NCBI RefSeq assembly: GCF_026240635.1
Contig: NZ_CP110848.1
Coordinates: 1,366,501-1,430,500 of the forward strand
DNA length: 64,000 nt
Source: Trichothermofontia sichuanensis B231
Lineage (GTDB): Bacteria > Cyanobacteriota > Cyanobacteriia > B231
Reading direction: 5' to 3'
Shown: positions 13,306 through 51,168 of the stretch, in pieces
Layout: the number at the start of each line of letters is the position of its first letter
Numbering within the stretch: position 1 is the first letter of the stretch
Position numbers and translations under genes: made by a program
Notes under the pieces: model-generated
Told to the model about the DNA's origin: nothing
The model's input: the letters and a program-made list of their open reading frames with translations, nothing else
Database searches by the model: none

Positions 13306-14538
13306 CTATGTCGATAAACTAACCTCTGTACGCAGTTCTATTGACTTCCGGTAGCTAAGAACTAGGAGCCAGATTAATGCACCGACCAAGATAAACACAC
13401 GATAATGGAGTAAAAAATCAATCTTTAATGGTCTAAGAAAACGTTGTGGGAAGAACATAGATGCCATCACAATAATGCCCACTAGAGATTGTTTGTCATT
13501 GTGATGTAGATGTCGCCAGACAACAGCTACAAGGGGTGCTAGTACAACCAGATCATAATCATGAGAAAATCCCATTAACAAGGCTATCGCTGGAAGGATT
13601 CCAATAATGTCATCATGTAGAAATTGCTGCCGTTGCCACCATAATATGCCAACTAAAATAACTCCTACGGGCAGTAAATTAGGTAAATTGATCCCTAGTG
13701 AATGAAGTGCATTTTGGAGACCGAAAATATTTTGAAATCCCAAGGAGTTGTGAACTAAGGATGTATAGATCTTGAGAGATCCAAACCAGTATTTAAATAC
13801 TGCGATAGGACCGGTAATAAGCATTGGATATAAAGAAAAAACTAGAATTGAGAGTGCTGCAACTCCTAACAATCGCAATCTACGTTCGAGTAATAACCAT
13901 ATTAAGATCAAGAGCGTCACTTGCGGTTTGAAGGTAGAAAAGCCAATCAGGATGCCACTCAATAGCCATCGTTTACGCTCAGCAAAATACCACCCACCTA
14001 CCCAGGCAGCCGTTGCAATTATGGATGTTTGTCCCATCCACAAGATATGGGCTGTAAAAGGATTACCAATGATAATGGCTGGGATAAACCACTTAGGTGC
14101 TGAACTAGTATCATCGAGTTCTTTAATAGAGCCTCGTTGTACAAATCGGACGCAGAAAAATGCTACAGCAAGTATACTGAATAGATTCAGAAGAACCATC
14201 AAGGCACGGGCTTTAGCAAACGGAAAAAGGCCCAGTAGTAAGACGAAGGGTGCAATTTGAGGTGGGTAGGCAAAATCATAGCGTTGAGCGCTGACTAATC
14301 CTCCACTCACCTGGCTAGCGATCTGGGGATCATAGGCATTTAGTCCTTTTAACCAGGTTAAGCCACCTATGTACAGGATTTTCATATCAAATCCCATATC
14401 GTAGGGGCCTTGCCCAAAACCACCATCCCGACCAATACCAAATACCCCAAAGGCAAGCATGGAAGTTACCGCCATTCCCAGAATGATTATTCTCACTAGC
14501 GGTTTACTAGACAATGTACTTAACTTAGCTGTGCTCAT
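13306..14538 (-). CDS. GT87-like (DUF2029) membrane glycosyltransferase
   Basis: A 410-residue integral membrane protein with about ten hydrophobic segments. The first periplasmic-type loop contains GGFGQGPYDMGFDMKILYIGG, and later YPPQIAPFVLLLG and GFSTFKPQVTLLILIWLLLERR, the pattern of the DUF2029/GT87 family. These enzymes use polyprenyl-phosphate sugars (mannose in mycobacteria). The neighbouring GT2 gene would be a plausible source of such a lipid-linked sugar. Its base composition is AT-richer than the flanking genes. The exact sugar and acceptor are unknown. Confidence 0.72.
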   Translation of the reverse strand: MSTAKLSTLSSKPLVRIIILGMAVTSMLAFGVFGIGRDGGFGQGPYDMGFDMKILYIGGLTWLKGLNAYDPQIASQVSGGLVSAQRYDFAYPPQIAPFVLLLGLFPFAKARALMVLLNLFSILAVAFFCVRFVQRGSIKELDDTSSAPKWFIPAIIIGNPFTAHILWMGQTSIIATAAWVGGWYFAERKRWLLSGILIGFSTFKPQVTLLILIWLLLERRLRLLGVAALSILVFSLYPMLITGPIAVFKYWFGSLKIYTSLVHNSLGFQNIFGLQNALHSLGINLPNLLPVGVILVGILWWQRQQFLHDDIIGILPAIALLMGFSHDYDLVVLAPLVAVVWRHLHHNDKQSLVGIIVMASMFFPQRFLRPLKIDFLLHYRVFILVGALIWLLVLSYRKSIELRTEVSLST

Positions 14539-14688
14539 GGTTATCTCCAGTGGGCAGGGGGATAATAGGATTTTTACTAGAAACTTAGTTCAACAAAGTT
14601 AGGTAAAATGTCTGATATTTATATCGCTGTCGATATCTATGCGATCGAAAAATTAAACACGATCAAAAAATTAAACAATTACTTGATA

Positions 14689-15375
14689 TCATTCTTCTGA
14701 TTTCTGGCCGATTCGCAGTTTAAGACGAGGATCTTGACGATGGCGGCGATACCAGGTTGCCCCCAGGATCAAGATACCGATCATGCCTAGTGAACCTAAG
14801 AGCGGTAGAATGTCTCCTGTTTGAATGGCCTGTACCCCAAAACTGCCGAGCAATACAAAGGGTAAAAGTCCCGGTATTGTTCCTAGACAGGTGCCGAGTA
14901 CATAGTCTTTAGAACGGATGGAGGTCAGGCCGGCAGCAAAATTGACCAGACCATAGGGAATAATTGGCAGAAGACGAATGGCTGCAATATACCATAATCC
15001 CCCCTGTTTAAACTCCGCATCTAGGACTTGCCAATTACCCGTCAAATGACGTTTGGCCCATTGTTGCCCTAGGGTTCGTGTAAAGGCAAAGGTCACGATC
15101 GCAGCCATCAAGGCAGCAATACTTGTCCATAGGGTACCTAACCAAGGGCCGAAAATAGCCCCACCTGTGAGATTAAGTGCAGTTGAGGGGAGGATCAGAA
15201 CCGTTGCAATGACATAGATAACAATATACAGTAGAGGTGCCCAAATTCCTGCATACTTAAGCTGTGTTTGTAGCTGTTCGGGGGGAAGTTTAATCACGAG
15301 GTAGAACGCTAGGCTAGTCGCAACTAAACATATAACTGTTAAGGTAATGATAATGAGACGGTACTGCTTTGACAT
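14689..15375 (-). CDS. TVP38/TMEM64 (DedA-like) membrane protein
   Basis: A 228-residue membrane protein with four to six hydrophobic segments. The family core is seen in LNLTGGAIFGPWLGTLWTSIAALMAA (approximately residues 68-93), FAFTRTLGQQWAKRHL and RLLPIIPYGLVNFAAGLTSIRSKDYVLGTCLGTIPG. TVP38/DedA proteins are thought to move or scramble lipids, including undecaprenyl phosphate. That would fit the two flanking genes for lipid-linked sugar transfer, but it is inference. The start is ATG 15375. Confidence 0.85.
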   Translation of the reverse strand: MSKQYRLIIITLTVICLVATSLAFYLVIKLPPEQLQTQLKYAGIWAPLLYIVIYVIATVLILPSTALNLTGGAIFGPWLGTLWTSIAALMAAIVTFAFTRTLGQQWAKRHLTGNWQVLDAEFKQGGLWYIAAIRLLPIIPYGLVNFAAGLTSIRSKDYVLGTCLGTIPGLLPFVLLGSFGVQAIQTGDILPLLGSLGMIGILILGATWYRRHRQDPRLKLRIGQKSEE

Positions 15376-15462
15376 TAGGAATTTTCTTAGTTAATCAATT
15401 GAATGCATAATTTATAATTATAACTTGAGGGCTATCCATCAATAGCTATCTTCTGAGAATTA

Positions 15463-16509
15463 TTATTCAGAATTATTATAAAACGCGGTTTCACGAGATC
15501 GGGCATGATCGTTGTCACTGCTAGGTTGATCTGCCTTGATCCCATAAAGATCGCGAACAAGATATAGAGGTCTTCTTTTTACCTCTTCATAAACACGCCC
15601 TAGGTATTCGCCAATAATACCCAGCGTAATCAGTTGCATCCCACCTAAAAAGAGGAGTACGACCATCAATGAGGCATAGCCAGGAACATCAATGCCTAGA
15701 ATCAAAGTGCGTAGAACCAGGAAAAAAGCATAGCCAAACGCAACGAAGGACAGAGTTACCCCGATATAACTCCACATTTTTAGAGGAACGAGGCTAAAGG
15801 AGGTAATTCCATCGACGGCAAAATTCCATAACCGCCAATAGTTCCATTTTGTTTTGCCCTTGTATCGCTGATCGCGATCGTAATAGATAGCAGTTTGTCG
15901 AAAGCCAACCCAGGCAAACAAACCTTTCATAAAGCGTGTCCGTTCAGGTAGTTGCTTAAGGGCCGTCACAACTCGGCGATCGAGCAATCGGAAATCACCC
16001 GTATCACGGGGAATAGCGATTGCGCTCATCTGCCCCATCACACGATAGAAAGCATTAGCCGTTAAGCGCTTCAACCACGTTTCACCTTGTCGGGTTTTAC
16101 GGGTTGCGTAGACCACATCAAAACCCTCTCGCCATTTTTCAACTAAAGTCCCAATTAACTCAGGCGGATCTTGTAGATCTGCATCAATAGGAATAACGGC
16201 TGCACCTGTGGAAAAATCGATACCAGCCGTTAATGCAATTTCTTTACCAAAGTTTCTAGAGAAGTTGATAACTTTAATGCGGGAATTACGATAATGATGT
16301 TCTACTAACTTCTCAAGTGTACGATCGCAGCTTCCATCATTGATACAGACAAACTCATAAGACAATCCAATCTTGTCCAGTACCGACTCTAGCCGCTGGA
16401 ATAAATAGTCAATGTTTTGCTCTTCGTTATAACACGGTATAATAATAGATAATTGAGGGTCAGAAGAACCTGGTTCAGAGGTTAGAGATAACATTGACAT
16501 AATGACCAC
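15463..16509 (-). CDS. GT2 glycosyltransferase, DPM1/GtrB-like
   Basis: A 348-residue protein. Residues 20-240 form a GT2 (GT-A) catalytic domain: LSIIIPCYNEEQNI, NDGSCDRT, NFSRNFGKEIALTAGID, the nucleotide-sugar/metal motif PIDADLQDPPEL, and TGDFRLLDRRV. Two membrane helices follow (about residues 250-310), ending in GEYLGRVYEEVKRRP. This is the layout of polyprenyl-phosphate glucosyl- or mannosyl-transferases such as GtrB. It probably makes a polyprenyl-P-sugar at the cytoplasmic face for the GT87-like enzyme encoded downstream. A start at ATG 16500 (MSMLSL) is equally possible. Confidence 0.88.
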   Translation of the reverse strand: MVIMSMLSLTSEPGSSDPQLSIIIPCYNEEQNIDYLFQRLESVLDKIGLSYEFVCINDGSCDRTLEKLVEHHYRNSRIKVINFSRNFGKEIALTAGIDFSTGAAVIPIDADLQDPPELIGTLVEKWREGFDVVYATRKTRQGETWLKRLTANAFYRVMGQMSAIAIPRDTGDFRLLDRRVVTALKQLPERTRFMKGLFAWVGFRQTAIYYDRDQRYKGKTKWNYWRLWNFAVDGITSFSLVPLKMWSYIGVTLSFVAFGYAFFLVLRTLILGIDVPGYASLMVVLLFLGGMQLITLGIIGEYLGRVYEEVKRRPLYLVRDLYGIKADQPSSDNDHARSRETAFYNNSE

Positions 16510-46808: not shown

Positions 46809-46906
46809 GGTTCTTCTGGGTTTATGGTGGGGGCGCGTAGCGCCCCCACCATAAACCCAGTATTTTGTAGCTTTTTGCACTGTTACACCAAAATCTCAGA
46901 AGAGCC
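46809..46906 (-). mobile_element. MITE family A, copy 3 (98 bp) at the mutY stop
   Basis: The element begins GGTTCTTCTGGG, with the GC-rich palindrome at the left end, and ends CTCAGAAGAGCC. Its orientation is reversed relative to copy 4, with which it shares the arm GATTTTGGTGTAACAGTGCA. It is 13 bp shorter than copy 4. The 8-bp duplication gcagtaat (46801-46808 and 46907-46914) includes the mutY stop codon, so the coding sequence is not altered. Confidence 0.92.
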
Positions 46907-48765: not shown

Positions 48766-51168
48766 ATGCATCAATTACATTCCTTGAGAACTGTAATCAT
48801 CACTGCTTCTGATGCTCAATATTTTGATCTAGCCCAAGGTACGATCCTTTCGGTTCTAGAAGCCCAAAAGACAAATCAAATCTCAATTGGTTTCTTAGAT
48901 CTTGGCTGTACTCTAGAACAGCTTGCTTGGCTCAAACAGAGAGTTGATTCCATCCAAAAGCCAACCTGGCATTTTAACTTTCCCAATCAAGACAAAACCC
49001 CTGGCTATGTTAAGGGTTTGTTAGTACGTCCTTACCTGCGGCAGTATTTTCCGGACTTCGATATTTATTTGTGGATTGATGCTGATGCTTGGGTTCAAGA
49101 CTGGTTAGCGCCGGAGCTATATATTCACGGTGCAGCGCGAAGAAAAGGATTGGCAATTACTCCAGAATATCACCGCGCTAGCCAACAGCTTTATGGGGGA
49201 TTACCGAACTTCTGGCGCTGGATTTACGATCGCTACTTAGAAAACTTTAACGAAGCAATCGCTCAGAAACTACAAAGTTATCCTCTCTGCAATGCAGGTA
49301 TTTTCTCACTGCATAAGGATGCTAAACATTGGCAACTATGGGAAAAACACCTTAAAGAAGCCTTGCAAAAGCCTCAAGAAAAAATGGTAAAGATGTCAGA
49401 TCAGTTTGTGCTAAATTTTGTAATTTATGAGTGTGGTCTGTTTAATTATACTGAAATTCTACCAGCATGGTGCAACTGGATTTTCAATGCTTTTCCAGCC
49501 TGGGATAAAATTCAAGGAAGGTTAGTTGAACCCTACCTCCCTCATCACCCGATTGGGATTCTACACTTGGCAGGTAGACAAAATATTGGAAGTGTTAAAC
49601 TTCAGGCAACTGATGGCAGTATAGTTGAGCTAAATGTAAGATATAAATCAAAACAAAACCCTGTTTTCAGAGATGCATCTAAGGTTGAGTTAATGAATAG
49701 TACAAGTCATTCACAAAATCGCTGGGACTATATTTCTCCAGGATTTCACGTGGTTAGGCCAGATAGCGCTTTTCCAAATATGCAAGTAGGTCAGGCAGAT
49801 CCAAGCAAGTGGAAGTATCTTCGCTGGCAAATTCCTCATAATTGGTATGTTGATCAACGCTATCCTCATATTGGTTTTTTAAGTCGTGATGAGGTACATA
49901 TTCTTTATAACAATGCTTTACGATTTCGCGGTAAGAAAGCGTTAGAGATTGGCTGTTGGATGGGATGGTCAGCCTGTCATTTAATGCTCGCTGGCGTTGA
50001 TCTAGATATTATTGATCCGATTCTAGCAAATCCGGAAGTTCGCACCAGTGTTGTCAGTTCTCTGCAAACCGCTTGTCAATCTGCTGGGATAGCTGGGCAA
50101 TTTGTGTTAGTGCCTGGTTACAGTCCACAAAAGGTTGAGGAATTAGCTCTGCAACATGGCAGGAAGTGGTCTCTTATCTTCATTGATGGTGAACATGGGG
50201 CACCCGGTCCTCTCAACGACGCGATCGCCTGTGAAAAATATGCCGAAGCTGATGCAATGGTCCTATTTCATGATCTTGCTGCACCTGATGTGGCCCAGGG
50301 CTTAGACTATTTCCGCGATCGAGGCTGGCACACAATGATTTATCAAACAATGCAAATCATGGGTGTGGCATGGCGTGGCAATGTTCAACCAGTACAACAT
50401 CAACCTGATCCAAAAGTTAGTTGGACTTTACCGGATTTCTTGAAAGGCTATCGAACTAGCAGTTTATCAGTGCCAGAATACCCTAGTAATCATAACGGTG
50501 ATCTAGACAGTCGACAAGAATTTCATGAGATTGTCGAAAAAATACGCCCCTTCTCATTACTGAGTGAAGCTCGCCTCCATAACCTGTACACAAAAGCCAA
50601 GGAAATTTGTATTAACGATTTGCCAGGGAACTTTGTTGAATGTGGTACCTATCGGGGAGGAGTCGCTGCGATGTTAGGTGTTATTATCCAACGCTATAGT
50701 TCCCGCCCCCGTAAAGTTTATGCCTTTGATACATTTGAAGGGATGCCTGAGCCAACAGAAATTGATAAGCATCAAAATACACCTGCTAATCAAACGGGTT
50801 TTGGAGCAGGAGCGTTGAAAGCACCGATTGCCGAAAACATTGCAAAAATCTGCCAGATTCTAAATGTCCAGGATATCGTTGTTCCAGTACAAGGACTATT
50901 TGCGCAAACATTACCTACTTACAAATTTTTAATTGATAAAATATCACTTTTGCATGCTGATGGCGATTGGTATGAATCAACGATGGATATTTTTAGGAAC
51001 TTATACAATCAAGTCATTGAAAATGGGATTATTCAAGTGGATGATTATGGCCATTGGCAAGGATGTCGTCAGGCTATTCATGACTTTGAGAAAACTCAAG
51101 GGATTAGCTTTCATCTGTACCCAATTGACTATACAGGGGTCTGGTTTACCAAACAATCAATAAGGTAG
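48766..51168 (+). CDS. Three-domain glycosyltransferase / methyltransferase / TylF-type O-methyltransferase
   Basis: An 800-residue multidomain protein. Residues 1-300 resemble a GT-A glycosyltransferase (metal motif WIDADAW with Asp105 and Asp107, NAGIFSLHKDAKHWQLW, a late HPIGILHLAG). Residues 365-560 are a class I SAM methyltransferase: ALEIGCWMGWSACHLMLAG (SAM site) and SLIFIDGEHGAPGPLNDAIA. Residues 590-800 are TylF/MycF-like: GNFVECGTYRGGVAAMLGV, VYAFDTFEGMPEP, LHADGDWYESTMDIFRNLYN and QVDDYGHWQGCRQAIHDFE. This suggests a sugar-transfer enzyme that also methylates its product. Base composition is AT-richer than its neighbours. It starts at ATG 48766. Confidence 0.8.
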   Translation: MHQLHSLRTVIITASDAQYFDLAQGTILSVLEAQKTNQISIGFLDLGCTLEQLAWLKQRVDSIQKPTWHFNFPNQDKTPGYVKGLLVRPYLRQYFPDFDIYLWIDADAWVQDWLAPELYIHGAARRKGLAITPEYHRASQQLYGGLPNFWRWIYDRYLENFNEAIAQKLQSYPLCNAGIFSLHKDAKHWQLWEKHLKEALQKPQEKMVKMSDQFVLNFVIYECGLFNYTEILPAWCNWIFNAFPAWDKIQGRLVEPYLPHHPIGILHLAGRQNIGSVKLQATDGSIVELNVRYKSKQNPVFRDASKVELMNSTSHSQNRWDYISPGFHVVRPDSAFPNMQVGQADPSKWKYLRWQIPHNWYVDQRYPHIGFLSRDEVHILYNNALRFRGKKALEIGCWMGWSACHLMLAGVDLDIIDPILANPEVRTSVVSSLQTACQSAGIAGQFVLVPGYSPQKVEELALQHGRKWSLIFIDGEHGAPGPLNDAIACEKYAEADAMVLFHDLAAPDVAQGLDYFRDRGWHTMIYQTMQIMGVAWRGNVQPVQHQPDPKVSWTLPDFLKGYRTSSLSVPEYPSNHNGDLDSRQEFHEIVEKIRPFSLLSEARLHNLYTKAKEICINDLPGNFVECGTYRGGVAAMLGVIIQRYSSRPRKVYAFDTFEGMPEPTEIDKHQNTPANQTGFGAGALKAPIAENIAKICQILNVQDIVVPVQGLFAQTLPTYKFLIDKISLLHADGDWYESTMDIFRNLYNQVIENGIIQVDDYGHWQGCRQAIHDFEKTQGISFHLYPIDYTGVWFTKQSIR

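What the first reader, a model, noticed from the sequence alone, without database searches (positions are those of the whole stretch)
48766..51168. One protein joins a glycosyltransferase, a SAM methyltransferase and a TylF-type O-methyltransferase
The order GT-A (WIDADAW), class I MTase (EIGCWMGWSACH) and TylF/MycF (VECGTYRGGVAAMLG) in one chain suggests a processive sugar addition and methylation machine, maybe for a cell-surface glycan. It is isolated from other glycan genes and is AT-richer than neighbours, hinting at transfer.
Basis: partly seen in the sequence, partly recalled or inferred. Interest (0 to 1): 0.55.

Follow-up and report, generated by a model that had tools for sequence, protein, structure and literature searches.

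The report
Sugar-adding and double-methylating cyanobacterial protein
One cyanobacterial protein carries a sugar-attaching part and two methyl-adding parts; it belongs to a widespread but unnamed family of mix-and-match glycan-building proteins, some of whose genes sit beside the gene for the cell's surface pili, which suggests that methylated sugars are put on such surface proteins.

Summary
Window 48766-51168 (+) is one open frame of 800 aa with a GT8-like GT-A glycosyltransferase (aa 1-300), a COMT-like class I methyltransferase (321-567, Methyltransf_24) and a TylF/MycF-type sugar O-methyltransferase (590-797). Each domain is predicted with good confidence and keeps its active-site motifs. 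It is not a frame error: intact homologues exist in other cyanobacteria. The middle domain marks a modular family: the 80 best named loci, all cyanobacterial, put it behind a GT8-like (28), a GT4 (24) or no (28) glycosyltransferase, and before TylF, Methyltransf_23+GT2, CmcI-type, GT4 or GT41 modules. A major-pilin gene lies in 13 of 80 loci (about 0.6 expected), usually with the GT41 'Ogt' gene that published work ties to pilin glycosylation; GT41 is fused to the family in 5. Best reading: an enzyme that adds a sugar and methylates it at two positions, most likely on O-glycans of exported proteins such as pilin. In this genome pilA-GT41 lies 1.7 Mb away, so the acceptor is inferred. GC (0.417 against 0.531) is far lower than the family's usual offset, so acquisition is plausible. 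'Processive' has no support. Known parts, undescribed combination: a new variant of a known kind.

The parts
48766..51168 (+). gene for the 800-aa GT8-like / methyltransferase / TylF protein
48766..49665 (+). GT8-like GT-A glycosyltransferase domain, aa 1-300
   Evidence: PF01501 23.3 bits, cut-off 24.3; model pLDDT 86; LgtC/UGGT fold
49078..49086 (+). DXD motif (DAD, aa 105-107), invariant in 29 of 29 aligned rows
49726..50466 (+). middle class I methyltransferase, Methyltransf_24 / COMT-like, aa 321-567
   Evidence: profile against PDB; model matches COMT-type O-methyltransferases, Z about 17.5
49945..49959 (+). SAM-binding motif EIGCW (aa 394-398)
50182..50196 (+). IDGEH (aa 473-477), putative metal/catalytic loop of the middle methyltransferase
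   Evidence: role inferred
50266..50277 (+). FHDL (aa 501-504), putative metal site of the middle methyltransferase
   Evidence: role inferred
50533..51156 (+). TylF/MycF/NovP-type O-methyltransferase, aa 590-797
   Evidence: PF05711 150 bits; SpnH/MycF/NovP by sequence and structure, Z 24-26
50959..50967 (+). DGD (aa 732-734), part of the TylF metal site
   Evidence: aligned with the DGD of MycF and SpnH; metal role recalled
51040..51048 (+). DDY (aa 759-761), part of the TylF metal site
   Evidence: aligned with the DDY of MycF and SpnH; metal role recalled

Best explanation
The protein is a cytosolic trifunctional glycan-building enzyme. The N-terminal GT8-like domain transfers a sugar from a nucleotide sugar in a metal-dependent, probably retaining reaction. 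The two C-terminal methyltransferase domains then O-methylate that sugar, or the growing end of the glycan, at two different hydroxyls, giving a di-O-methylated residue, possibly a deoxyhexose. It belongs to a cyanobacterial family in which the middle methyltransferase is the constant part while GT and second-methyltransferase modules are exchanged. Its product is most likely part of an O-glycan on exported proteins, with the major type IV pilin PilA the leading candidate, and the methyl groups may cap or mask the glycan. Shown: the frame, the domains, predicted folds and motifs, the family's modularity, and its repeated linkage to pilA and GT41. Inferred: the activities, the sugar, the order of steps, the cytosolic location and the acceptor.
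For: Domains. The nearest solved relatives of the TylF domain methylate sugars: SpnH (rhamnosyl 4'-O), MycF, NovP (NovP's substrate recalled). Some relatives insert a third, Rhamnosyl O-methyltransferase/CmcI-type domain (5 of 16 tails tested), which points to methylated deoxyhexoses. Modularity: 80 loci; the middle-domain tree needs at least 12 changes among the labels GT8-like / other GT / none. Pilin link: a PilA gene in 13 of 80 loci (11 of 24 GT4 type, 2 of 28 GT8-like type, 0 of 28 without a GT), a GT41 gene in 15 of 80 and GT41 fused in 5. Base rate: about 117 pilin hits at E<=1e-12 (hand count) in 59 genomes of about 265 Mb, so about 0.6 expected in 1.36 Mb. L094, with the window's domain order plus a C-terminal domain, has pilA, Sll1693-like, GT61, GT9 and GT41-type genes around it. 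PMC12288463 (passages): ogt lies beside pilA in many cyanobacteria and is involved in PilA glycosylation. PMC8546353 (passages): the pilA2-sll1696 locus promotes PilA1 glycosylation.
Against: In the window's own genome pilA-GT41-GT41-GT61 lies about 1.7 Mb from this gene. The Microcoleus-type relatives that share the GT8-like-MT-TylF order adjoin a TPR/GT9 giant, not pilin. The 80 loci are related, so the 13 are not independent. No activity, sugar or acceptor was measured. The GT domain is under Pfam's GT8 cut-off. Two of the three G004/G028 copies in alignment A1 carry N in place of the D of FHDL.
Confidence: 0.5

Rival explanations
1. It builds an O-methylated part of a polysaccharide (EPS, capsule or O-antigen) and not of a protein glycan.
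For: Surface polysaccharide enzymes also join GT and methyltransferase domains; WsaE makes the 2-O-methyl cap of an S-layer glycan assembled on a lipid carrier (PMC2943079, passages). The relatives in G004 and G028 sit near an lpxD-like gene and GT/FkbM-like genes (read by eye).
Against: No Wzx/Wzy, Wzm/Wzt or priming transferase was recognised in the neighbourhoods listed (names mostly by eye). The strongest conserved neighbours of glycan type are pilA and GT41.
Confidence: 0.3
2. It is a tailoring enzyme that glycosylates and methylates a small secondary metabolite, as TylF, MycF, SpnH and NovP do.
For: The closest solved relatives of the TylF domain act on antibiotics (pathways partly recalled).
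Against: No PKS, NRPS or aglycone gene was recognised in this window (names by eye). In relatives the neighbours are pilin and protein- or surface-type glycosyltransferases.
Confidence: 0.07
3. It is a recently acquired gene that is little used or not expressed here, with function only in the donor lineage.
For: GC 0.417 against 0.531; long end branches in the GT, MT and TylF trees (0.71, 0.48, 0.51); no promoter-like site in front of the gene in the simple scan; no partner genes adjacent.
Against: The frame is intact, all motifs are kept, and there is a plausible ribosome-binding site 30 bp after the upstream gene.
Confidence: 0.12

Closest known systems
WsaE of Geobacillus stearothermophilus (S-layer glycan)
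   Same: One soluble chain with GT and SAM sugar O-methyltransferase domains; the methyl group caps a protein-bound glycan (PMC2943079, passages).
   Different: WsaE is methyltransferase first and then two rhamnosyltransferases; here it is one GT8-like domain first and then two methyltransferases.
PBCV-1 A064R (chlorovirus)
   Same: GT-A domain at the N-terminus and a class I methyltransferase at the C-terminus build and O-methylate the end of a capsid glycan (PMC9614988, passages).
   Different: A064R has two GTs and one methyltransferase; the second methyl comes from a separate protein, A061L. Here two methyltransferases are fused. No sequence relation was tested.
TylF/MycF/NovP/SpnH sugar O-methyltransferases (PF05711)
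   Same: The C-terminal domain is a clear homologue with DGD and DDY kept.
   Different: Those solved are separate enzymes of antibiotic pathways; here the domain is fused to a GT and a second methyltransferase.
GT8 glycosyltransferases (LgtC, glycogenin, UGGT)
   Same: GT-A fold, DXD, and NAG-, DQ..LN- and H-type motifs in similar order (motif names recalled; UGGT is classed elsewhere in CAZy as I recall).
   Different: Sequence score just under Pfam's GT8 cut-off.
Cyanobacterial pilin Ogt (GT41) next to pilA
   Same: Repeatedly adjacent to, and in 5 of 80 loci fused with, the family studied here.
   Different: The window protein has no GT41 or TPR part and is not beside pilA.

Membership tests
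TylF / PF05711 O-methyltransferases | score over the curated cut-off | tested here: met
   150.1 bits against 23
TylF / PF05711 O-methyltransferases | DGD and DDY acidic residues | tested here: met
   aligned with MycF/SpnH; metal role recalled
TylF / PF05711 O-methyltransferases | fold of MycF/NovP/SpnH | tested here: met
   Z 24.2-25.8, rmsd 2.0-2.7, 187-212 residues aligned
TylF / PF05711 O-methyltransferases | methylates a sugar hydroxyl | not testable with these tools
   needs an assay
Methyltransf_24 / PF13578 | score over the curated cut-off for the middle domain | tested here: met
   39.9 bits against 26.3
GT8 / PF01501 | score over the curated cut-off | tested here: not met
   23.3 bits against 24.3; 7 of 29 rows match at E<=0.01. 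So called GT8-like only
GT8 / PF01501 | GT-A fold with DXD | tested here: met
GT8 / PF01501 | retaining transfer from a nucleotide sugar | not testable with these tools
   needs an assay
WsaE-type trifunctional enzymes | order methyltransferase-GT-GT | tested here: not met
   order here is GT-methyltransferase-methyltransferase
PBCV-1 A064R | GT-A fold like A064R domain 1 | tested here: inconclusive
   not compared directly; not among the rows shown
Cyanobacterial pilin-glycosylation locus | gene next to pilA | tested here: not met
   pilA at 3.114 Mb, this gene at 1.415 Mb; met for 13 of 80 relatives
GT41 / Ogt | PF13844 domain | tested here: not met
   no GT41 match in the window protein

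The most novel reading that the evidence does not exclude
Cyanobacteria carry a combinatorial set of modular glycan synthases, built around one conserved methyltransferase module, that write strain-specific, multiply O-methylated glycans on type IV pilin and other exported proteins. Swapping of GT and methyltransferase modules varies the surface, for example to escape phages or to tune adhesion, and the window gene is a horizontally acquired member.
Probability: 0.3. Interest if true: 0.65.

Novelty: new variant of a known kind. Interest (0 to 1): 0.45.

Why it matters
Pilin glycosylation is reported as needed for working pili in cyanobacteria, yet beyond Ogt the enzymes are largely unassigned. 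A widespread, unnamed family linked to pilA-ogt, carrying two or three sugar O-methyltransferases per chain, gives testable candidates for O-methylated pilin glycans and a natural collection of GT/methyltransferase fusions for glycan engineering. If the window copy is an acquired one, it also shows such modules moving between cyanobacteria.

Tried and rejected
Frame error or chance fusion: rejected, since intact full-length relatives exist. Plasmid carrier: 26 plasmid records matched, none over 80% of the query; the best were a 30-33% GT-domain match in Azospirillum and single TylF proteins. Processivity: no feature found. Mobile-element marks: no tRNA in the window, no convincing flanking repeats.

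Module swap inside the window chain: suggestive only. The GT tree groups it with Tychonema-type copies that lack TylF (89/91, not starred), and the middle-domain tree rejects that grouping (p-AU 0.005). But the GT tree does not reject the alternative (p-AU 0.085), and the TylF tree does not reject grouping it with the Microcoleus GT8-like-MT-TylF set (p-AU 0.314). These groups were chosen after seeing the trees.

A064R and WsaE were considered as families and kept as analogues only. The A064R domain 1 structure did not appear among the rows shown. Not done: empty-site test, codon-usage statistics beyond GC and GC3, listing of the 52 lower-scoring loci. Paper searches: no paper of the held library holds all of TylF + glycosyltransferase + methyltransferase + cyanobacteria + fusion, or all of TylF + pilin + glycosyltransferase + cyanobacteri (the best listed hold three). 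This says nothing about subscription papers.

Full report
What is there. One open frame at 48766-51168 (+), 800 aa, single copy in a 4.44-Mb one-contig genome. Pfam finds TylF at 596-796 (146 bits) and Methyltransf_24 twice; Glyco_transf_8 falls just under its cut-off. NCBIfam has no model for it. AlphaFold2 gives confident domains (GT alone pLDDT 86; full length pLDDT 83 but pTM 0.43, so the mutual placement is unknown). The GT is a GT-A fold nearest LgtC and UGGT. The middle domain resembles COMT-type O-methyltransferases. The last resembles NovP, SpnH and MycF (Z 24-26). Motifs kept: DAD 105-107, EIGCW 394, IDGEH 473, FHDL 501, VECGTYRGG 624, DGD 732, DDY 759; in the 29-row GT alignment D105, A106 and D107 are invariant.

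The family. Searching for the middle domain in named genomes gave 132 confirmed loci, of which the best 80 were kept; the record titles of all 80 are cyanobacterial. In an even sample of the class, 43 of 388 genomes match at E<=0.001, about ten of them only weakly; the GT8-like domain is found in 14 of 376. Architectures of the 80: GT8-like first in 28, GT4 first in 24, no GT in 28. The GT8-like set has TylF in 14: three of these also carry a C-terminal domain without a Pfam match, five carry a third, RMNT_CmcI-type methyltransferase, and six have only the three domains of the window (L052, L059, L066, L067, L073, and L086, which is cut by its contig end). Eleven of the 28 have a GT2 module instead, nine of these with a Methyltransf_23 domain. 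Among GT4-type proteins a second GT4 and GT41 modules are common. On the middle-domain tree the three labels need at least 12 changes (there one unnamed GT2-type row was labelled with the GT4 group): modules have been exchanged repeatedly, though label counts follow relatedness and cannot tell gain from loss.

Context. In 13 of the 80 loci a major-pilin gene lies within the fetched DNA (E<=1e-12): 11 of 24 GT4-type, 2 of 28 GT8-like-type (L048, L094), 0 of 28 without a GT. From 59 genomes of about 265 Mb with about 117 pilin hits at the same E-value (hand count, a different program) I expect about 0.6 in the 1.36 Mb examined. The loci share ancestry, so this is an enrichment and not an independent count. 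A GT41 gene is present in 15 of 80, and GT41 is fused in L041, L053, L058, L070 and L113; Pfam confirms GT41 in the separate 740-aa protein of L041 and in a fused relative, the unnamed L030. A Sll1693-like methyltransferase gene occurs in 8 of 80 (named after the passage in PMC12313861, where Sll1693 is a methyltransferase of the pilA1 operon; the homology to Sll1693 itself is my inference). Literature, passages only: PMC12288463 says that ogt lies beside pilA in many cyanobacteria and is involved in PilA glycosylation; PMC8546353 says that the pilA2-sll1696 locus promotes PilA1 glycosylation. The two primary Ogt papers cited there are not held.

The window's own genome has pilA followed by two GT41-type genes (Pfam run on the first) and a TPR/GT61 gene at 3.114 Mb, 1.7 Mb from this gene. 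So the pilin assignment is by family analogy only. Its nearest GT8-like relatives, in Microcoleus and Tychonema, adjoin a giant TPR protein with GT9 matches rather than pilin.

Origin. Gene GC is 0.417 and GC3 0.338, uniform over the three domains, against 0.531 for the window. Relatives are on average 0.030 below their flanks (sd 0.018, minimum -0.059, 71 loci with at least 4 kb of flank out of 80), and the family's mean gene GC is 0.419, so the window copy has a normal family composition in a GC-richer genome. This fits acquisition from an AT-richer cyanobacterium. The trees give it long branches and no firm donor. No phage, plasmid or mobile-element carrier was found.

Mechanism. The GT8-like domain transfers a sugar, and two distinct O-methyltransferases then act on different hydroxyls. 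That TylF's solved relatives methylate rhamnose or other sugars, and that relatives add a CmcI/rhamnosyl-type methyltransferase, makes a multiply O-methylated deoxyhexose the likeliest product; this is inference. The closest working analogues are WsaE and A064R, both of which O-methylate the end of a protein-bound glycan.

Verdict. The parts are known; the combination and its link to the pilin locus were not found described in the searches listed.

Noticed in passing
window 13306-16509: A second AT-rich island (GC 0.418, 0.472, 0.432) of three minus-strand genes that read by eye as a membrane sugar transferase, a DedA/TVP38-type protein and a GT2, beside a csaB-like gene. Glycan genes in this genome may be acquired repeatedly.
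   Followed up: no
L158:8176-15061: Own-genome pilin locus: pilA, two GT41-type genes, then an AT-rich (0.402) TPR/GT61 gene.
   Followed up: partly
L044, L049, L056, L061, L065: Relatives with three methyltransferase domains in one chain (Methyltransf_24, RMNT_CmcI, TylF) behind a GT8-like domain.
   Followed up: partly
G305:C93:566-3280: Three consecutive GT8-like domains in one frame, with a middle-methyltransferase match just downstream that has a stop inside.
   Followed up: no
L032:7864-8205: About 110-aa C-terminal domain without a Pfam match that recurs at the end of many of these GT/methyltransferase proteins; a possible shared docking module.
   Followed up: no
window 46816-46860: Perfect 21-bp inverted repeat with a 3-nt loop just after the mutY-like gene.
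   Followed up: no
L213:5980-6906: Stand-alone relative of the GT domain (about 33% identical) on an Azospirillum plasmid, annotated only as glycosyltransferase.
   Followed up: partly
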